Made by a program: the position numbers and the translations under genes. DNA of 64,000 nucleotides from CBDFMG01 sp965221205 [NCBI: bacterium] (GTDB taxonomy: Bacteria > SM23-31): the NCBI GenBank assembly GCA_965221205.1, contig OZ244870.1, forward strand, positions 2,418,001 through 2,482,000, written 5' to 3'. The notes beneath the pieces are model-generated. The model saw nothing but the letters and a program-made list of their open reading frames with translations. It ran no database searches and was not told the origin of the DNA. Positions 20,963-42,931 of this stretch are shown piece by piece (the first letter of the stretch is position 1; each line of letters opens with the position of its first letter).

Positions 20963-22177
20963 ATGTTTTCTGATATAAATGAACAAATGGATGTTATAAA
21001 ACGGGGTGTTGAGGAGATTATTTCGGAAGATGAACTAGTTAAGAAATTAGAAAAAAGCAAAAAAACGAATAAGCCACTGATTGTAAAAGAAGGGTTTGAT
21101 CCTACTGCACCCGATCTGCATATCGGCCATATGGTTTCAATCAGGAAATTGAAGGATTTTCAAGTTCTTGGCCACACAGTTGTGTTTCTTATTGGTGATT
21201 TTACCGGAATGGTTGGGGACCCATCCGGCAAAAACGAAATGCGGAAAATGCTGACCCTTGAAGAAGTGGCGCAAAACGCCGAGACATACAAGGAACAGAT
21301 ATTTAAAGTTCTCGACCCAGTCAAGACAGAGATACGTTTCAACAGTGAGTGGTTAGGAAGGTTGACTATCTATGATTTTCTTGAGTTAACATCAAAACAG
21401 ACTGTTGCAAGGATGCTTGAGCGTGATGACTTCAAGGAACGCTTTAAGAATGAAGTTGATATCAGTATGCTCGAATTTTGCTATCCGCTACTCCAGGGAT
21501 ATGACTCGGTAGCTCTGAAAGCGGACGTTGAACTAGGGGGAACGGATCAGAAATTCAATCTCATTATGGCTCGTCTTATTCAAAAGCGGTTTGATCTGGA
21601 AAGCCAAGTCATTGTCACACTGCCACTTCTCGAGGGGATTCGCGGTGTTGAAAAGATGAGCAAAAGCCTCAATAATTATATTGGTATCAATGAAGAAGCA
21701 AATAATATTTTTGGCAAAGTCATGTCGATTCCGGATACTTTAATCAGTCGTTATTTTCTCCTTGCCACTCGGATATCCAGGGAAGAGCTCATTGTAATCG
21801 AAAAGCGGCTCAACGATCCCGTGGCCAATCCATCGACATTAAAACGCCAATTAGCCCGCGAAATTGTTGCTGAGTATTATTCAGATGATGAAGCAAGCGT
21901 AGCTGAACAGGAATTCGATAAAGTGTTCAAACAAAAAGAAGATCCGACCGATATAGAAGAGGTAACATTAACATTATCACAGCCAGTATGGATCGTTAAA
22001 TTGCTTTCTCATTCGGGATTAGTTTCAACAAATGCTGAAGGTAGAAGAATGGTAAAGCAGGGTGCGGTATCAATTAATGGAGAGCAGTATACAGATGAAA
22101 ACAGTGAATTAACGGTTGAAAATGGGACGATTCTCAAAGTCGGAAAAAGACGTTTCAAAAAAATCAGAATCCCATAA
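20963..22177 (+). CDS. tyrS: Tyrosyl-tRNA synthetase
   Basis: 404 residues. Class I synthetase charging tRNA-Tyr in the cytoplasm. The HIGH-type motif appears as [12 protein letters not shown] near residue 50 and KMSKS near 230; the C-terminus has an S4-like RNA-binding domain ([28 protein letters not shown]). The long form with '[12 protein letters not shown]' belongs to the TyrRS type 2 group (TyrZ-like) rather than the short E. coli type. It follows smpB by 36 bases and may share its transcript. Confidence 0.95.
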
Positions 22178-31410: not shown

Positions 31411-32715
31411 TTACTTCCTGATGCTATTTATCAAATCATAAAATCCGGGAAAAGAAATGTTTGCCCAATGGCCTTCTTTAATACTAGTGTTTCCATCCAA
31501 AGCAGTACCGGCAACTGCAAAGGCCATAGCTATTCTATGATCTCCGAAAGAGTCAAATTCCGCACTATGTCTGTTACGGTTTGAAGATATAATCAGCCCA
31601 TCAGAAAACTCTTCAACATCAACACCCATATTCTCAAGATTTTTGCAAAGAGCGTGGATTCTGTCAGTTTCTTTTACTCGTAGCTCTTGTGCATCTCTAA
31701 TTTCTGTTTTACCTTCAGAAAAAGCCCCTGCAACGGCTATAATCGGAAGTTCATCTATTACTCTCGGTATAATATCGCCACTTATCGTAATACCTTTGAG
31801 CTTTGAAGATTTAATTACCAGATCAGCTATTTCTTCTCCTCCGGTAACAGTAGCACTATGTTCTTCTATATCTGCACCCATCAATCTGAGAACATCGATA
31901 ATACCGGTACGGGTTTTATTCATCCCAACATTTTTGATCGTAAGGTGTGATCCAGGCAGGAGACATGCCAATACCGCAAAAAAAGCCGCACCTGATATAT
32001 CGCCCGGAATTGTAAGGTCAAATGGCATTAATGAATCAATTCCAGTTATGGATATACTATTTGTGCTTGTTTCAGTCTGTACAGGCACGCCACACGAAGA
32101 TAGCAGACGTTCGGTATGATCCCTCGAAGGAAGTGGTTCAATCACTGTTGTGGTGCCATGTGCATAAAGTCCCGCAAGTAGTACCGCAGATTTAACCTGT
32201 GCACTCGCAACCGGCAATTCATAAGTGATTGGCTGAAGTTGGGCGGAATTAACGGTGTAGAGGAGATTCCCGTCAGTACCCGAGCAGATAATGTCGGCAC
32301 CCATTTTTCTTAATGGAATTAAAATTCTATTCATCGGCCGCTGTTGTAATGATGCATCACCGGTTAGTTCAAACGAATTGCGTTGGCCTGCAAGAATCCC
32401 TGTTAATAGTCGGAATGTTGTACCGGAATTGCCGCAATCGAGTTTTTCCTGAATTGAATTAAAACCGTACAGTCCATTTCCCTCTATTATGATAGAATTG
32501 GAGCCGGATGTTTTTGTATAAATTCCAAGCTTTTGTACACAATTGAGAGCACTTTGGATATCTTCTCCACTACCGAGACCTCTTATGCTGCTTACTCCAT
32601 CAGCCAAGGCGGCAAAAAGAACAGCGCGAATCGATATTGATTTGTCTCCCGGTATATGAATTGTTCCCTGTGCTGACCCTCCTGGAACGATCTCTAAAGC
32701 ATTCTCTGCGATCAC
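31411..32715 (-). CDS. aroA: 5-enolpyruvylshikimate-3-phosphate synthase
   Basis: 434 residues. Joins shikimate 3-phosphate with phosphoenolpyruvate. Two alike lobes; signatures are PGDKSISIRAVLFAAL near the N-terminus, LDCGNSGTTFRLLTG, and the C-terminal DHRIAMAFAVAG. Its ATG overlaps the stop of the preceding DAHP synthase by four bases, so translation is probably coupled. Confidence 0.95.
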   Translation of the reverse strand: MIAENALEIVPGGSAQGTIHIPGDKSISIRAVLFAALADGVSSIRGLGSGEDIQSALNCVQKLGIYTKTSGSNSIIIEGNGLYGFNSIQEKLDCGNSGTTFRLLTGILAGQRNSFELTGDASLQQRPMNRILIPLRKMGADIICSGTDGNLLYTVNSAQLQPITYELPVASAQVKSAVLLAGLYAHGTTTVIEPLPSRDHTERLLSSCGVPVQTETSTNSISITGIDSLMPFDLTIPGDISGAAFFAVLACLLPGSHLTIKNVGMNKTRTGIIDVLRLMGADIEEHSATVTGGEEIADLVIKSSKLKGITISGDIIPRVIDELPIIAVAGAFSEGKTEIRDAQELRVKETDRIHALCKNLENMGVDVEEFSDGLIISSNRNRHSAEFDSFGDHRIAMAFAVAGTALDGNTSIKEGHWANISFPGFYDLINSIRK

Positions 32716-33737
32716 TGTATCTCCGGTAACTTTCTATCAAGAGCAGGAGCTATAATTCTCATTTTGTTCATAAGTTGCTCGAATTGCCGAGGATAAAGAG
32801 ATTGGCGCCCATCAGAAATTGCTTTGTCCGGCTCTGGGTGTACCTCGACGATTAGTCCGTCTGCTCCGGCGCTAATTGAACCGAGCGATAAGGGCAATAC
32901 GTTTTCCCGTACTCCTGCAGCATGGCTCGGATCGACAATGATAGGCAAATGGCTCAATTTTTTTACTGCAGGAATGATGCTGATGTCCAGGGTAAATCGT
33001 GAGTGCTGGGCAAATGTCCGGACACCCCTTTCACATAATATAACATTATAATTTCCTTCAACCATAATATATTCGGCTGACATCAAGAATTCCTCTAATG
33101 TTGCAGAGAACCCCCGCTTCAAGAGAATCGGTTTTCTGGTTTTCCCCGCGGCTTTCAATAAGGAATAGTTCTGCATGTTCCGAGCACCTATTTGAAGCAT
33201 ATCTGCATATTGAGCAACAAGAAAAAGAGAATCATTGTCAATGACTTCGGTCACGAACGGCAATTCGGTTTTTTCTCTTACATTTGCGAGGATTTCGAGA
33301 CCTTCTTGACCTAATCCCTGAAAGGAATAGGGTGAAGTGCGAGGTTTGAAAACTCCGCCTCTAAGCATACTGGCGCCTGATTGCTGCAGACGATCAGCAA
33401 GAACTGTAATTTGCTCTTTACTTTCTACAGCGCATGGACCTGCTATTATTTGAATTTTTTTATCCCCGAACCGGACTCCGCTTATATTCAGTATTGTGTT
33501 TTCAGGCTTTGTTTCTCTGCTGACAAGTTTATAGGGTGTCGTTACTCTGATAACCTGAACAACGTCAGGGAGGCTTTCAAAACGGTTCGTATCGATCTGG
33601 CCTGTATTCCCGGTGACACCAATTGAGGTCCTGAGCGAACCCGGAATACAGTGAGACACAAGACCGGAATCCTGTATGGCTTTGGTCACATTTTCAATGC
33701 TTTTCTCATTAGCATTTTGTGACATCACGACGAGCAT
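32712..33737 (-). CDS. DAHP synthase, type I-beta, copy 2 of cluster
   Basis: 341 residues. Condenses phosphoenolpyruvate with erythrose 4-phosphate, the first step of the shikimate pathway. The N-terminal ~75 residues form a ferredoxin-like regulatory domain as in Thermotoga-type enzymes, where Tyr or Phe can inhibit. The TIM-barrel core keeps IAGPCAVESKEQ, RGGVFKPRTSPYSFQG and QIGARNMQNYSLLK with the usual Lys, Arg and Cys/His. A close paralogue lies at 34623-35666 on the far side of tyrA, so the two may differ in feedback control. Confidence 0.93.
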   Translation of the reverse strand: MLVVMSQNANEKSIENVTKAIQDSGLVSHCIPGSLRTSIGVTGNTGQIDTNRFESLPDVVQVIRVTTPYKLVSRETKPENTILNISGVRFGDKKIQIIAGPCAVESKEQITVLADRLQQSGASMLRGGVFKPRTSPYSFQGLGQEGLEILANVREKTELPFVTEVIDNDSLFLVAQYADMLQIGARNMQNYSLLKAAGKTRKPILLKRGFSATLEEFLMSAEYIMVEGNYNVILCERGVRTFAQHSRFTLDISIIPAVKKLSHLPIIVDPSHAAGVRENVLPLSLGSISAGADGLIVEVHPEPDKAISDGRQSLYPRQFEQLMNKMRIIAPALDRKLPEIQ

Positions 33738-34622: not shown

Positions 34623-35666
34623 TCATACTGCGGCTGTTTCTTTTTCAGCTTGTGCAATGTTTCTTCCAACGACTTTTGCTATTGATCGGAGCTCTTTCAT
34701 CATTTGATTAAACTGCTCCGGTTTCAGTGACTGCGGTCCATCTGAAAGAGCTTTATCCGGATCAGTATGAACTTCGACCATGATTCCATCAGCACCTGCT
34801 GCAATTGCCGCTCTCGCCATAGGAATTACCATGTTTCTGATGCCCACAGCATGGCTGGGATCGGCAAATACAGGGAGATGACTGTGCTGTTGTGCAGCAG
34901 GAATTGCACTTACATCGAAGGTGTTCCTTGTATATTTTTCGAAAGTACGAATACCCCGCTCACACAGAATAACCCGGTCATTACCTCCGGAAAATATGTA
35001 TTCTGCGCTTAGAAGCCATTCCTCTATGGTAGCGGAAAGGCCACGTTTCAAAAAGACCGGTATGTTAGTACTGCCGACGGCCTTCAGCATTGAGTAATTT
35101 TGCATGTTTCTGGCACCAATCTGCATGATGTCTGCATACTCGGAAATAAGCGACACCTGACTAAAATCCATTAGTTCCGTAACAACCAGCAAGTCATTTC
35201 TATCGGCTGCTTTCCTTATCATTTTCAGACCTTCTTCACCAAGCCCCTGAAAGCTGTAGGGAGATGTACGGGGTTTAAATGCACCGCCGCGCAGCACTTT
35301 GACGCCGTTTTCAGCAAGAAGTGCCGCAATTTCCTCAATCTGGTCTACATTTTCAATAGAGCATGGTCCAGCCATTACTATTATTTCATTACCGCCAATT
35401 TCAACACCCTGTAAATCGAAAACGGAGTTATCCGGATGAAAATGTCTACCAACCCGTTTAAACGGTTCGGTAACACGCACAACTTCTTGGACGCCTTCCA
35501 GAATTTCGAATTCACGTATATCAATATCGCGTCTATCGCCAATAGCACCAAGCACGGTTTTCAATGAACCCGTCGATTTATGGATATCAAATCCTTTTGA
35601 TGTAAGGTGCGATACAACGTTTTCGATTTGACTTTCAGTGGCCCGATCGTCCATTACTATAATCAT
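34623..35666 (-). CDS. DAHP synthase, type I-beta, copy 1 of cluster
   Basis: 347 residues, paralogue of the 32712-33737 product with the same layout: N-terminal ferredoxin-like regulatory domain (MIIVMDDRATESQIENV), then the barrel with MAGPCSIENVDQ, RGGAFKPRTSPYSFQG and QIGARNMQNYSMLK. The regulatory domains of the two copies are clearly less alike than their catalytic cores. It follows chorismate mutase by about 22 bases. Confidence 0.93.
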   Translation of the reverse strand: MIIVMDDRATESQIENVVSHLTSKGFDIHKSTGSLKTVLGAIGDRRDIDIREFEILEGVQEVVRVTEPFKRVGRHFHPDNSVFDLQGVEIGGNEIIVMAGPCSIENVDQIEEIAALLAENGVKVLRGGAFKPRTSPYSFQGLGEEGLKMIRKAADRNDLLVVTELMDFSQVSLISEYADIMQIGARNMQNYSMLKAVGSTNIPVFLKRGLSATIEEWLLSAEYIFSGGNDRVILCERGIRTFEKYTRNTFDVSAIPAAQQHSHLPVFADPSHAVGIRNMVIPMARAAIAAGADGIMVEVHTDPDKALSDGPQSLKPEQFNQMMKELRSIAKVVGRNIAQAEKETAAV

Positions 35667-40474: not shown

Positions 40475-41044
40475 TCAATACTTTAAGAGAAGAAAATTAA
40501 GTAACAGTTGTTTTCCTTCAGTAGTGAGAATAGACTCAGGGTGAAATTGTACTCCTTCAACAGGGTGTTTTTTATGGCGAATTCCCATTATTATGCCGTC
40601 ATCCGTTTCTGCGGAAATAGTAAAACAGTCCGGTAATGATTTTCGGTCAACAATCAATGAGTGGTACCGTGTCGCTGTTAACGGATTTTCAATTCCTTTA
40701 AAAATAGATTCAGAATCGTGAAAAATTTGAGACGTTTTACCATGAACCAGTGACAGTGCGCGGACAACGTCTCCTCCAAATACCTCTCCAATTACCTGAT
40801 GACCGAGGCAAACTCCGAGAATCGGGATGGTTTGATGGAAGCGGGAAATAACTTCCGGACAAATTCCGCTATTTTCCGGTCGACCAGGCCCAGGTGAAAT
40901 TATAATCTTTTCAGGGCCAATTTTTTCTATATCATCTGCTGTAGTTTCATCATTCCGGTACACAACGACATGAGAACCGGATTCGCCGACATATTGGACA
41001 AGGTTATACGTAAAAGAATCGTAATTGTCAATTACCACTATCAT
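40475..41044 (-). CDS. trpG: Anthranilate synthase glutamine amidotransferase subunit
   Basis: 189 residues. Class I glutamine amidotransferase giving ammonia to TrpE. The catalytic Cys is in ILGVCLGHQVIGE, with His and Glu in GVQFHPESILT, and the oxyanion loop in ISPGPGRPENSG. It may also serve p-aminobenzoate synthesis. The start overlaps the trpE end by 17 bases. Confidence 0.95.
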   Translation of the reverse strand: MIVVIDNYDSFTYNLVQYVGESGSHVVVYRNDETTADDIEKIGPEKIIISPGPGRPENSGICPEVISRFHQTIPILGVCLGHQVIGEVFGGDVVRALSLVHGKTSQIFHDSESIFKGIENPLTATRYHSLIVDRKSLPDCFTISAETDDGIIMGIRHKKHPVEGVQFHPESILTTEGKQLLLNFLLLKY

Positions 41045-42546: not shown

Positions 42547-42588
42547 ATTAAAATAAAAAGCCGCGAAACATGAGCGGTTCTGCGGCTT
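42547..42588 (-). terminator. Attenuator terminator before trpE
   Basis: Minus strand: stem AAGCCGC/GCGGCTT (arms 42582-42588 and 42558-42564) with a 17-base loop, followed by a U-rich run (TTTTATTTT in part). It lies between the leader peptide stop and the trpE start and is positioned as the stop-or-go element of an attenuator. Confidence 0.85.
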
Positions 42589-42590
42589 AA

Positions 42591-42624
42591 ATAATTGATT
42601 TTTGTTATAGTTAGAGTCAATTAT
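42591..42624 (-). promoter_or_regulatory. Hairpin spanning the trp leader stop codon
   Basis: Arms ATAATTGA (42617-42624) and TCAATTAT (42591-42598) pair over eight bases with an 18-base loop. The first arm contains the leader stop codon, so a ribosome ending there would block this hairpin; the second arm ends two bases before the terminator stem. It may be part of the switch, but I could not resolve a full set of alternative pairings by eye. Confidence 0.5.
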
Positions 42625-42694
42625 GCAAAAACAGCGGAATATCCCCTCCGTAAAACCAATACCACCAATAATATGTTGCACTGTTATTATTCAT
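42617..42694 (-). CDS. trpL: Aromatic leader peptide (25 residues), trp attenuator
   Basis: A 25-codon frame with ATG at 42694 and TGA at 42619-42617. Residues 8-15 are eight consecutive aromatic residues, YYWWYWFY, with another Phe at 22. It sits between a consensus-like promoter and an intrinsic terminator ahead of trpE. This is the layout of transcription attenuation: ribosome progress across the aromatic codons should sense charged tRNA-Trp and, unusually, tRNA-Tyr and tRNA-Phe. The peptide itself is not expected to have a function. No strong ribosome site is visible, which is common in this kind of genome. Confidence 0.85.
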   Translation of the reverse strand: MNNNSATYYWWYWFYGGDIPLFLHN

Positions 42695-42725
42695 TATGAC
42701 TCAATAAGTTCGATTAAGCGTTTTA

Positions 42726-42754
42726 AAAGTACGAAAATATGATTAGCGTGTCAA
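42726..42754 (-). promoter_or_regulatory. Promoter of the aromatic/trp operon
   Basis: Minus strand: perfect TTGACA (42749-42754), 17-base spacer, TACTTT (42726-42731). The transcript would begin about 24 bases before the leader ATG. No obvious TrpR-like operator palindrome overlaps it. Confidence 0.75.
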
Positions 42755-42867: not shown

Positions 42868-42931
42868 CATTGTACAGGAAGAGAGAACGTAGTATCTGTA
42901 TATAAAATCCCTCATCACAAGGGATTTTTTT
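42868..42931 (+). ncRNA. Candidate small RNA or mutL leader
   Basis: Between the extended -10 element and a terminator hairpin lies a 64-base stretch with no frame. It contains a possible first hairpin (TACAG 42873-42877 with CTGTA 42896-42900) holding a purine-rich loop with AGGAAGAGAGAA, then the terminator stem. This is the shape of a short regulatory RNA or of a terminated leader upstream of mutL. No known family is recognised; support is only promoter plus terminator. Confidence 0.35.
42905..42931 (+). terminator. Intrinsic terminator upstream of mutL
   Basis: Stem AAATCCC/GGGATTT (42905-42911 and 42921-42927), nine-base loop, then a run of T to 42931. It faces mutL, so either it ends a short transcript or it attenuates mutL. 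Confidence 0.75.

What the first reader, a model, noticed from the sequence alone, without database searches (positions are those of the whole stretch)
42547..42754. An attenuator that seems to read all three aromatic amino acids
Directly visible: a TTGACA-N17-TACTTT promoter, a 25-codon leader peptide with eight consecutive aromatic codons YYWWYWFY, an eight-base-pair hairpin over its stop codon, and an intrinsic terminator just before trpE. Classical trp leaders carry only Trp codons, and pheA leaders only Phe (and Tyr-poor) runs. Mixed Tyr/Trp/Phe codons fit the operon behind it, which contains the common pathway, tyrA and trp genes. If real, one ribosome-sensing switch balances the whole aromatic family.
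Basis: partly seen in the sequence, partly recalled or inferred. Interest (0 to 1): 0.88.

Follow-up and report, generated by a model that had tools for sequence, protein, structure and literature searches.

The report
Tryptophan-tyrosine attenuator of an aromatic operon
A short leader gene packed with tyrosine and tryptophan codons sits in front of one long operon for making these two amino acids and probably lets a stalled ribosome switch the operon on when either runs short; the mechanism is classical, the two-amino-acid mix is unusual.

Summary
The reported elements are all present, on the minus strand: a TTGACA-N17-TACTTT promoter, a 25-codon leader peptide with eight aromatic codons in a row (YYWWYWFY), a hairpin over its stop codon, and an intrinsic terminator before trpE. 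In 145 trpE upstreams of at least 300 nt, only these three had such a Trp/Tyr-rich run with a terminator. Each leader has an antiterminator competing with the terminator. In a downstream-only stalled-ribosome folding model it stays open for a ribosome on the aromatic codons and is lost by the stop codon, as in the E. coli trpL control; a model with free upstream folding did not show this. The cluster behind it has trpEGDCFBA, chorismate mutase, two DAHP synthases, tyrA and five aro genes, but no pheA, which fits a Trp+Tyr sensor. Phe is not supported: it is absent from both relatives' runs, and the window's single Phe codon sits where the antiterminator is no better than chance. Verdict: a classical ribosome-mediated attenuator of a new Trp-or-Tyr variety. 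Computational only; no expression data.

The parts
42749..42754 (-). -35 element TTGACA
   Evidence: TTGAC(A/T) with spacer 17 in 3 of 3 leaders
42726..42731 (-). -10 element TACTTT (TAAATT in L001, TAAACT in L004)
42617..42694 (-). leader peptide ORF MNNNSATYYWWYWFYGGDIPLFLHN, stop TGA; weak Shine-Dalgarno at best (by eye)
42650..42673 (-). eight consecutive aromatic codons TAT TAT TGG TGG TAT TGG TTT TAC (codons 8-15)
   Evidence: YYWWWY in L001 and YWWYYWY in L004
42648..42658 (-). antiterminator 5' strand, first option (UGGUUUUACGG, pairs with CCGCAGAACCG of the terminator); in the model fully open only when the ribosome stalls at Tyr8/Tyr9
42629..42639 (-). antiterminator 5' strand, second option (UUCCGCUGUUU, aligned with the L001 antiterminator strand); in the model used from Trp10 on, weaker
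42617..42624 (-). apical helix of the antiterminator, 5' strand AUAAUUGA (overlaps the leader stop codon)
42591..42598 (-). apical helix of the antiterminator, 3' strand UCAAUUAU
42547..42588 (-). intrinsic terminator: hairpin AAGCCGC.AGAAC...GUUU.GCGGCUU (42588-42558) and T-rich tract
   Evidence: -13.0 kcal/mol; third pair G-C here, A-U in L001 and L004
41028..42521 (-). trpE
   Evidence: TIGR00564 above cut-off
40475..41044 (-). trpG
   Evidence: TIGR00566
39407..40420 (-). trpD
   Evidence: TIGR01245
38594..39397 (-). trpC
   Evidence: NF001377
37993..38613 (-). trpF
   Evidence: NF002298
36786..37982 (-). trpB
   Evidence: TIGR00263
35970..36770 (-). trpA
   Evidence: TIGR00262
35689..35973 (-). 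chorismate mutase type II
   Evidence: PF01817, 88.3 bits
34623..35666 (-). DAHP synthase, copy 1
   Evidence: TIGR01361
33747..34607 (-). tyrA, prephenate dehydrogenase
   Evidence: PF02153 and PF20463
32712..33737 (-). DAHP synthase, copy 2
   Evidence: TIGR01361
31411..32715 (-). aroA
   Evidence: TIGR01356
30194..31354 (-). aroC
   Evidence: TIGR00033
29079..30170 (-). aroB
   Evidence: TIGR01357
28622..29059 (-). aroQ, type II dehydroquinase
   Evidence: TIGR01088
27654..28607 (-). aroE; end of the 16-gene cluster, largest gap between neighbouring genes 56 nt
   Evidence: TIGR00507; coordinates

Best explanation
This is a classical ribosome-mediated transcription attenuator that reads charged tRNA-Trp and tRNA-Tyr together. 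RNA polymerase starts at the TTGACA promoter, and a ribosome follows on the leader ORF. If Trp or Tyr is short, the ribosome stalls in the YYWWYWFY run. The RNA ahead of it then folds into an antiterminator that captures the 5' arm of the terminator, and transcription enters the 16-gene cluster. If both are plentiful, the ribosome runs to the stop codon and covers the antiterminator strand; the terminator forms and transcription stops. Because either shortage is enough, the run acts as an OR gate over the two end products whose branch genes are in the cluster. Shown here: sequence elements, conservation in three genomes, mutually exclusive structures, codon geometry in one folding model, gene content. 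Inferred: that the cluster is one transcript, that the leader is transcribed and translated, that the switch works kinetically, and that Tyr and Trp each act.
For: Conservation: two diverged relatives (TrpE 65% and 51% identical) keep the promoter with spacer 17, a leader ORF with a mixed Tyr/Trp run, and a terminator before trpE. Geometry: with a ribosome edge 12 nt beyond the first base of the A-site codon, folding energy of the RNA before the terminator's 3' arm is -17.5 to -8.7 kcal/mol for the window's eight aromatic codons and -0.9 at the stop. It is -14.5 for all six in L001 and -0.7 at the stop, and -26.6 to -21.9 for all seven in L004 and 0 at the stop. The E. coli trpL control gives -15.6 at both Trp codons and -4.4 at the stop; edges of 9 and 15 nt give a similar picture. 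Of 500 shuffles per leader, those reaching the observed difference were 2-6 (L001), 0 (L004), 2 and 5 (E. coli), and 13-28 for Y8, Y9, W10, W11, Y12 of the window. Shuffles with as much pairing of the terminator arm at the last aromatic codon and little at the stop: 12, 2, 1 and 10 of 400 for window, L001, L004 and E. coli. The third terminator pair is G-C in the window and A-U in the other two. Content: the window cluster holds all seven trp genes plus chorismate mutase and tyrA, and no pheA was found in the window. Contrast: four of six leader candidates that I followed up before clusters with only trp genes detected have WWWW, WWW, WWW and WWWY.
Against: No expression or translation data exist. 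In the window itself the later codons are weak: W13 68, F14 150, Y15 123 of 500 shuffles do as well, and 103 of 400 in an earlier test of the last codon. At full length the terminator is favoured at almost every stall position (probability 0.85-0.94; 0.47 at Trp14 of L004; 0.98 in E. coli), so the switch must be kinetic. When RNA upstream of the ribosome may also fold, a ribosome on the stop codon did not abolish pairing of the terminator arm in our three leaders (0.59-0.68; E. coli 0.00), and the pairing falls to 0.00-0.02 at W13-Y15 of the window and 0.22 at Tyr13 of L001; the downstream-only model was adopted after seeing this. Without a ribosome the terminator arm was half paired upstream in all three leaders (0.50-0.53) against 0.00 in E. 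coli, so a protector hairpin is not evident. Two of the four readable relatives lack the leader. Clusters with only trp genes detected can have other aromatic codons beside Trp: WWFFW in G270, WYW in G287, WWWY in G196, so an extra aromatic codon is not proof of sensing. In G003 tyrA lies on another contig than trpE, so the linkage there is inferred.
Confidence: 0.75

Rival explanations
1. A Trp-only attenuator: Trp codons do the sensing, and the Tyr (and Phe) codons are incidental fillers.
For: Trp codons are present in all three runs and trpE is the first gene. In C. glutamicum a Phe-Tyr-Phe leader responds to Phe but not to Tyr (reviewed in PMC11802643, passages seen). Clusters in which only trp genes were detected have WWFFW (G270), WYW (G287) and WWWY (G196), so neighbours of Trp can be other aromatics.
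Against: Tyr codons are kept in number (4, 3, 4) in three diverged runs and stand first in each run, and they fit tyrA and chorismate mutase in the cluster. None of the other upstreams scanned has a run with two or more Tyr among six aromatic residues in seven.
Confidence: 0.15
2. A three-input attenuator that also reads Phe.
For: The window run contains one Phe codon (TTT, codon 14), and the common-pathway genes in the cluster also feed Phe.
Against: No Phe in the run of L001 or L004. Codon 14 is the worst position of the eight (150 of 500 shuffles as good). No pheA found in the window.
Confidence: 0.06
3. A plain promoter and terminator with a chance ORF; no sensing.
For: Leader ORFs have weak or no Shine-Dalgarno sequence (by eye). 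The antiterminator of the window alone is only modestly better than shuffles.
Against: Runs of 6 or more aromatic codons occur in at most about 1 of 1000 shuffles per leader, yet all three have one at the same place. The switch boundary falls just behind the run in L001 and L004.
Confidence: 0.03
4. A T-box or protein-dependent (TRAP-type) leader.
For: Such leaders control aromatic operons in Firmicutes (recalled; TRAP is described in the abstract start of PMC4027176, search listing only).
Against: No Rfam family in the leader at the gathering score, T-box included. The weak scan up to E 10 listed five families, GcvB at 21 bits (gathering 42), His_leader at 20.9 (49), trpB at 17.3 (59), snR46 and RefA1, and no T-box. 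TRAP-type repeats were not searched for.
Confidence: 0.01

Closest known systems
E. coli trpL attenuator (Rfam Trp_leader; RF00513 is named in PMC4046766, passage seen)
   Same: Promoter, short leader ORF with control codons, antiterminator and terminator sharing one strand, U-tract, directly before trpE; similar stall geometry in the same downstream-only model.
   Different: Control codons are Tyr and Trp in one run, not Trp only. The cluster also carries tyrA, chorismate mutase and the common pathway. No clear protector hairpin, and E. coli behaves differently when upstream RNA may fold. No Rfam match at the gathering score.
Corynebacterium glutamicum aroR leader (Phe-Tyr-Phe) before aroF
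   Same: A leader peptide with two kinds of aromatic codon before a DAHP synthase operon (PMC11802643 and PMC4046766, passages seen).
   Different: No Trp in the described Phe-Tyr-Phe stretch, and reported to respond to Phe, not Tyr; the operon differs.
Multivalent leaders of branched-chain operons (ilvGMEDA, ilvBN)
   Same: One leader with control codons for several amino acids made by one operon (the codon mix is recalled; both operons are named among attenuated operons in PMC1183508, passage seen).
   Different: Branched-chain, not aromatic amino acids; no sequence relation tested.
Attenuator-preceded tyrA supraoperons, such as that of Desulfovibrio vulgaris (five genes next to a seven-gene trp operon)
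   Different: The section gives no leader peptide or codon content; I could not examine that genome.

Membership tests
Classical ribosome-mediated transcription attenuator | Promoter followed by a short leader ORF before a biosynthetic operon | tested here: met
   3 of 3 leaders: TTGAC(A/T)-N17-TA element, ORF of 20-30 codons, trpE next; promoter activity itself untested
Classical ribosome-mediated transcription attenuator | Run of control codons cognate to the products of the operon | tested here: met
   YYWWYWFY and YYWWWY before clusters with trp genes, chorismate mutase and tyrA; YWWYYWY before trp genes in G003, whose tyrA-aro block is on another contig
Classical ribosome-mediated transcription attenuator | Intrinsic terminator with U-tract between leader ORF and first gene | tested here: met
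   -13.0, -17.2 and -15.9 kcal/mol
Classical ribosome-mediated transcription attenuator | Antiterminator sharing the 5' arm of the terminator | tested here: met
   helices of 9-12 pairs with one mismatch in 3 of 3; folding difference better than 494-500 of 500 shuffles in L001 and L004, weaker in the window
Classical ribosome-mediated transcription attenuator | Stall at control codons leaves the antiterminator open, arrival at the stop codon closes it | tested here: inconclusive
   met in the downstream-only fold with E. coli trpL as control; not reproduced when upstream RNA may fold too
Classical ribosome-mediated transcription attenuator | Pause/protector hairpin (1:2) that favours termination without translation | tested here: inconclusive
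   terminator arm half paired upstream without a ribosome (0.50-0.53) against 0.00 in E. coli
Classical ribosome-mediated transcription attenuator | Readthrough changes with tRNA charging | not testable with these tools
   needs an experiment
Rfam Trp_leader RF00513 | Match to the covariance model | tested here: not met
   no match at the gathering score; not among the five weak matches up to E 10; window only, the two relatives were not scanned
T-box leader | Match to the T-box model | tested here: not met
   window only

The most novel reading that the evidence does not exclude
One ribosome-sensing switch serves all three aromatic amino acids in this organism with a built-in ranking: strongest for Tyr8/Tyr9, middle for Trp10/Trp11/Tyr12, weakest for Phe14/Tyr15, so a single leader weighs the whole aromatic family for a 16-gene operon.
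Probability: 0.06. Interest if true: 0.75.

Novelty: new variant of a known kind. Interest (0 to 1): 0.5.

Why it matters
If true, it is an aromatic counterpart of the multivalent branched-chain leaders: one ribosome integrates Trp and Tyr charging to control both branches and the shared pathway at once. It would also be a leader peptide that answers to Tyr, of which I saw no responsive example in the listings and passages read, and it places classical attenuation in a small lineage whose one named genome here is a metagenome assembly. It would support the idea that the codon mix of a leader follows the content of the operon behind it.

Tried and rejected
All-three reading: rejected as the main claim for the reasons in the rivals. 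T-box/TRAP: no T-box model match; TRAP repeats not searched. Rows labelled 'pheA' were my error: the script had picked a neighbouring dehydratase-like ORF (probably ilvD, by eye); repeated with the prephenate dehydratase of G005, which found none in the window. The first stalled-ribosome model, with upstream RNA free to fold, did not separate the stop codon from the run in our three leaders and is reported as evidence against; the downstream-only model was adopted after seeing it, so the choice is not blind. G002, the closest relative by the TrpE C-terminus (77%), has its contig cut inside trpE, so its leader could not be seen. G004 had no TrpE match at E 0.01. A pattern search for TAYTGGTGGTR in the six genomes gave 64 places against 43 for its reversed control. 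I scanned the 30 that came with a locus; beside the two known leaders I followed none up. A look for runs of His or aromatic codons around the his-trp-aro cluster of G005 found nothing convincing.

Literature: nine searches and the passages opened showed no leader with mixed Trp and Tyr control codons. The library holds only open-licence papers, so the specialist reviews on trp leaders (recalled: Merino and Yanofsky; Vitreschak and colleagues) were not read, and prior description there cannot be excluded.

Changes on re-check: I had left out a sixth followed-up candidate (G287, WYW before a trp cluster) and had written that G003's cluster contains tyrA although its contigs are split; for these the best explanation goes from 0.77 to 0.75 and the Trp-only rival from 0.13 to 0.15. 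The novel case goes from 0.08 to 0.06 to agree with the three-input rival.

Full report
What is there. The finding lies on the minus strand between the divergent genes mutL (from 42995, plus) and trpE (42521-41028, minus). Searches show TTGACA-N17-TACTTT (42754-42726) and a leader ORF (42694-42617) reading MNNNSATYYWWYWFYGGDIPLFLHN. They also show an 8-bp helix AUAAUUGA/UCAAUUAU over the stop codon, and a terminator hairpin at 42588-42558 of -13.0 kcal/mol. The eight-codon aromatic run is the only run longer than five in any of the six frames of the 64-kb window, and 21 of 20,000 dinucleotide shuffles of the 214 nt before trpE have a run of six or more.

What it controls. The genes behind it are trpE, trpG, trpD, trpC, trpF, trpB, trpA, a type II chorismate mutase, DAHP synthase, tyrA, a second DAHP synthase, aroA, aroC, aroB, aroQ and aroE. 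The largest gap between neighbours is 56 nt (coordinates); that they form one transcript is inferred. So the Trp branch, the Tyr branch and most of the common pathway are in one cluster. A prephenate dehydratase query (Phe branch) found nothing in the window.

Relatives. No whole genome is held for the window. Its phylum has six held genomes. L001 has the leader MILFSVKYYWWWYIMEESAV, and G003 (L004, TrpE 51%) has MAELKLHKVRESYWWYYWYCKQYEFTDWCD. In all three the promoter spacer is 17 nt and the first gene is trpE. The gene order of the window is kept in L001 up to the end of its contig in aroA. In G003 it is kept on two contigs (trpE-G-D-C, and DAHP synthase-tyrA-DAHP synthase-aroA-C-B-Q-E), and in G002 on two others. 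G005 and G006 have trpE behind his genes (named by eye) and no such leader. In G002 trpE is cut by the contig end, and G004 gave no TrpE match. So the leader is present in 2 of the 4 relatives whose upstream can be read, and in the window.

Antiterminator and terminator. In each leader a strand inside or at the end of the ORF can pair with the 5' arm of the terminator: UGGUUUUACGG/CCGCAGAACCG in the window, GUCCGCUGUUUAG/UUAAACCGCGGAU in L001 and GAGUUCACGG/CCGCGAACUC in L004, each with one mismatch. The third pair of the terminator is G-C in the window and A-U in the two relatives.

Stall geometry. I folded only the RNA ahead of a ribosome whose front edge lies 12 nt beyond the first base of the A-site codon, before the 3' arm of the terminator is made. 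In L001 the energy is -14.5 kcal/mol for all six aromatic codons and -0.7 at the stop codon. In L004 it is -26.6 to -21.9 for all seven and 0 at the stop. In the window it is -17.5 and -17.4 (Tyr8, Tyr9), -14.8 (Trp10, Trp11, Tyr12), -11.5 (Trp13) and -8.7 (Phe14, Tyr15), and -0.9 at the stop. E. coli trpL, the control, gives -15.6 at both Trp codons and -4.4 at the stop. Edges of 9 and 15 nt give a similar picture. Of 500 shuffles of the segment between run and terminator, 2-6 (L001), 0 (L004) and 5 and 2 (E. coli) reach the observed difference. For the window, 13-28 do for codons 8-12, 68 for Trp13, 150 for Phe14 and 123 for Tyr15. An earlier shuffle test of the last aromatic codon gave 103 of 400 for the window, 0 of 400 for each of the two relatives and 2 of 400 for E. 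coli; on the pairing measure the counts were 12, 2, 1 and 10 of 400.

Results against. With the whole leader allowed to fold, the terminator is preferred at almost every stall position (0.85-0.94, one L004 codon 0.47; E. coli 0.98). A ribosome on the stop codon did not free the terminator arm in our three leaders (0.59-0.68) though it did in E. coli (0.00). A ribosome on codons 13-15 left the arm unpaired in the window (0.00-0.02), and on Tyr13 of L001 nearly so (0.22). The switch is therefore inferred to be kinetic, and the downstream-only model was adopted after that result. No protector hairpin is evident. Shine-Dalgarno sequences are weak or absent by eye.

How common is the mix. I scanned 151 upstreams of TrpE matches, 145 with at least 300 nt: the window, 70 loci of the first survey (L002 dropped as a duplicate of L001) and 80 loci from the second survey of 386 genomes, of which 217 had a match. 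I did not fetch all listed matches, and some of those scanned are second, weaker TrpE-like genes of a genome. Only 700 nt before each match was scanned. Short ORFs with at least six aromatic residues in seven, two Trp and two Tyr among them, followed by a terminator, were found only in the window, L001 and L004. The rule listed 20 candidates in all; the other 17 have weaker mixes, and many may be chance. I followed up six of these 17 for gene content, by tblastn with the window's genes on the stretch fetched. WWWW (G079), WWW (G051) and WWW (G027) precede trpE-G-D-C-F-B-A with no tyrA or aro gene detected. WYW (G287, RWYWRRF) precedes trpE-G-D-C and a distant trpB match. WWFFW (G270) precedes trpEGDCF. 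WWWY (G196) precedes trpE-trpG followed by a purD-like gene. The first three fit leader composition following operon content; the last three are a caution that other aromatic codons beside Trp can be incidental. The other eleven were not checked.

Which amino acids. Tyr and Trp are in all three runs (4+3, 3+3, 4+3). Phe is in the run of the window only, once, at a position where the antiterminator is no better than chance. The Pfam prephenate dehydratase model found no match in G001, G003 and G004 and matches in G002, G005 and G006; the assemblies are in many contigs and their completeness is not given, so absence is weak evidence. I conclude Trp and Tyr, not all three.

Known systems. Classical attenuation by leader peptides is well known. 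In the open-licence library, passages of PMC11802643 and PMC4046766 describe the C. glutamicum aroR leader (Phe-Tyr-Phe), which the former says responds to Phe and not Tyr, and a Trp leader of its trp operon. Section 36 of PMC1173090 (read) discusses putative attenuators before tyrA supraoperons, one next to a trp operon, without codon content. [quoted passage not shown] PMC1183508 (passages) treats mixed codons in the control region in theory. The nine searches named under Tried and rejected showed no Trp+Tyr leader. Multivalent ilv leaders are recalled. Hence: a new variant of a known kind.

Noticed in passing
42906-42926 (window); 405, 413 and 377 nt before the TrpE match in W, L001 and L004: A conserved hairpin AATCCCT...AGGGATT lies upstream of the promoter in all three genomes and is the only one of its pattern in the window; possibly a terminator for the divergent neighbour.
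   Followed up: partly
L001 3266-9412; L004 3325-4482 and L115 4850-9565: In L001 carAB-like genes lie between mutL and the trpE promoter, and a carA-like gene lies there in G003; in the window mutL is the direct neighbour (car names by eye).
   Followed up: no
L126 2032-6852, L003 3166-3585 and L117: G005 has hisG-hisD-hisC-hisB-hisA-hisI-like genes (by eye) directly before trpE...aroE, a candidate his-trp-aro mega-cluster without an aromatic leader.
   Followed up: partly
L154 and L207 13600-14014: Leader candidate MKLKGIKSIIYRLWWFFWQGGLHASA with a terminator, before a trpEGDCF cluster: a Trp/Phe mixed run outside this phylum.
   Followed up: partly
L001 14737-15892: trpB of bacterium SM23_31 is split into two ORFs, a frameshift or assembly error.
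   Followed up: no
34623-35666 and 32712-33737: Two DAHP synthase paralogues of the same type flank tyrA; they may differ in feedback inhibition.
   Followed up: no
20963-22177: A tyrosyl-tRNA synthetase-like ORF (by eye, not searched) lies about 5.5 kb beyond the end of the aromatic cluster on the other strand.
   Followed up: no
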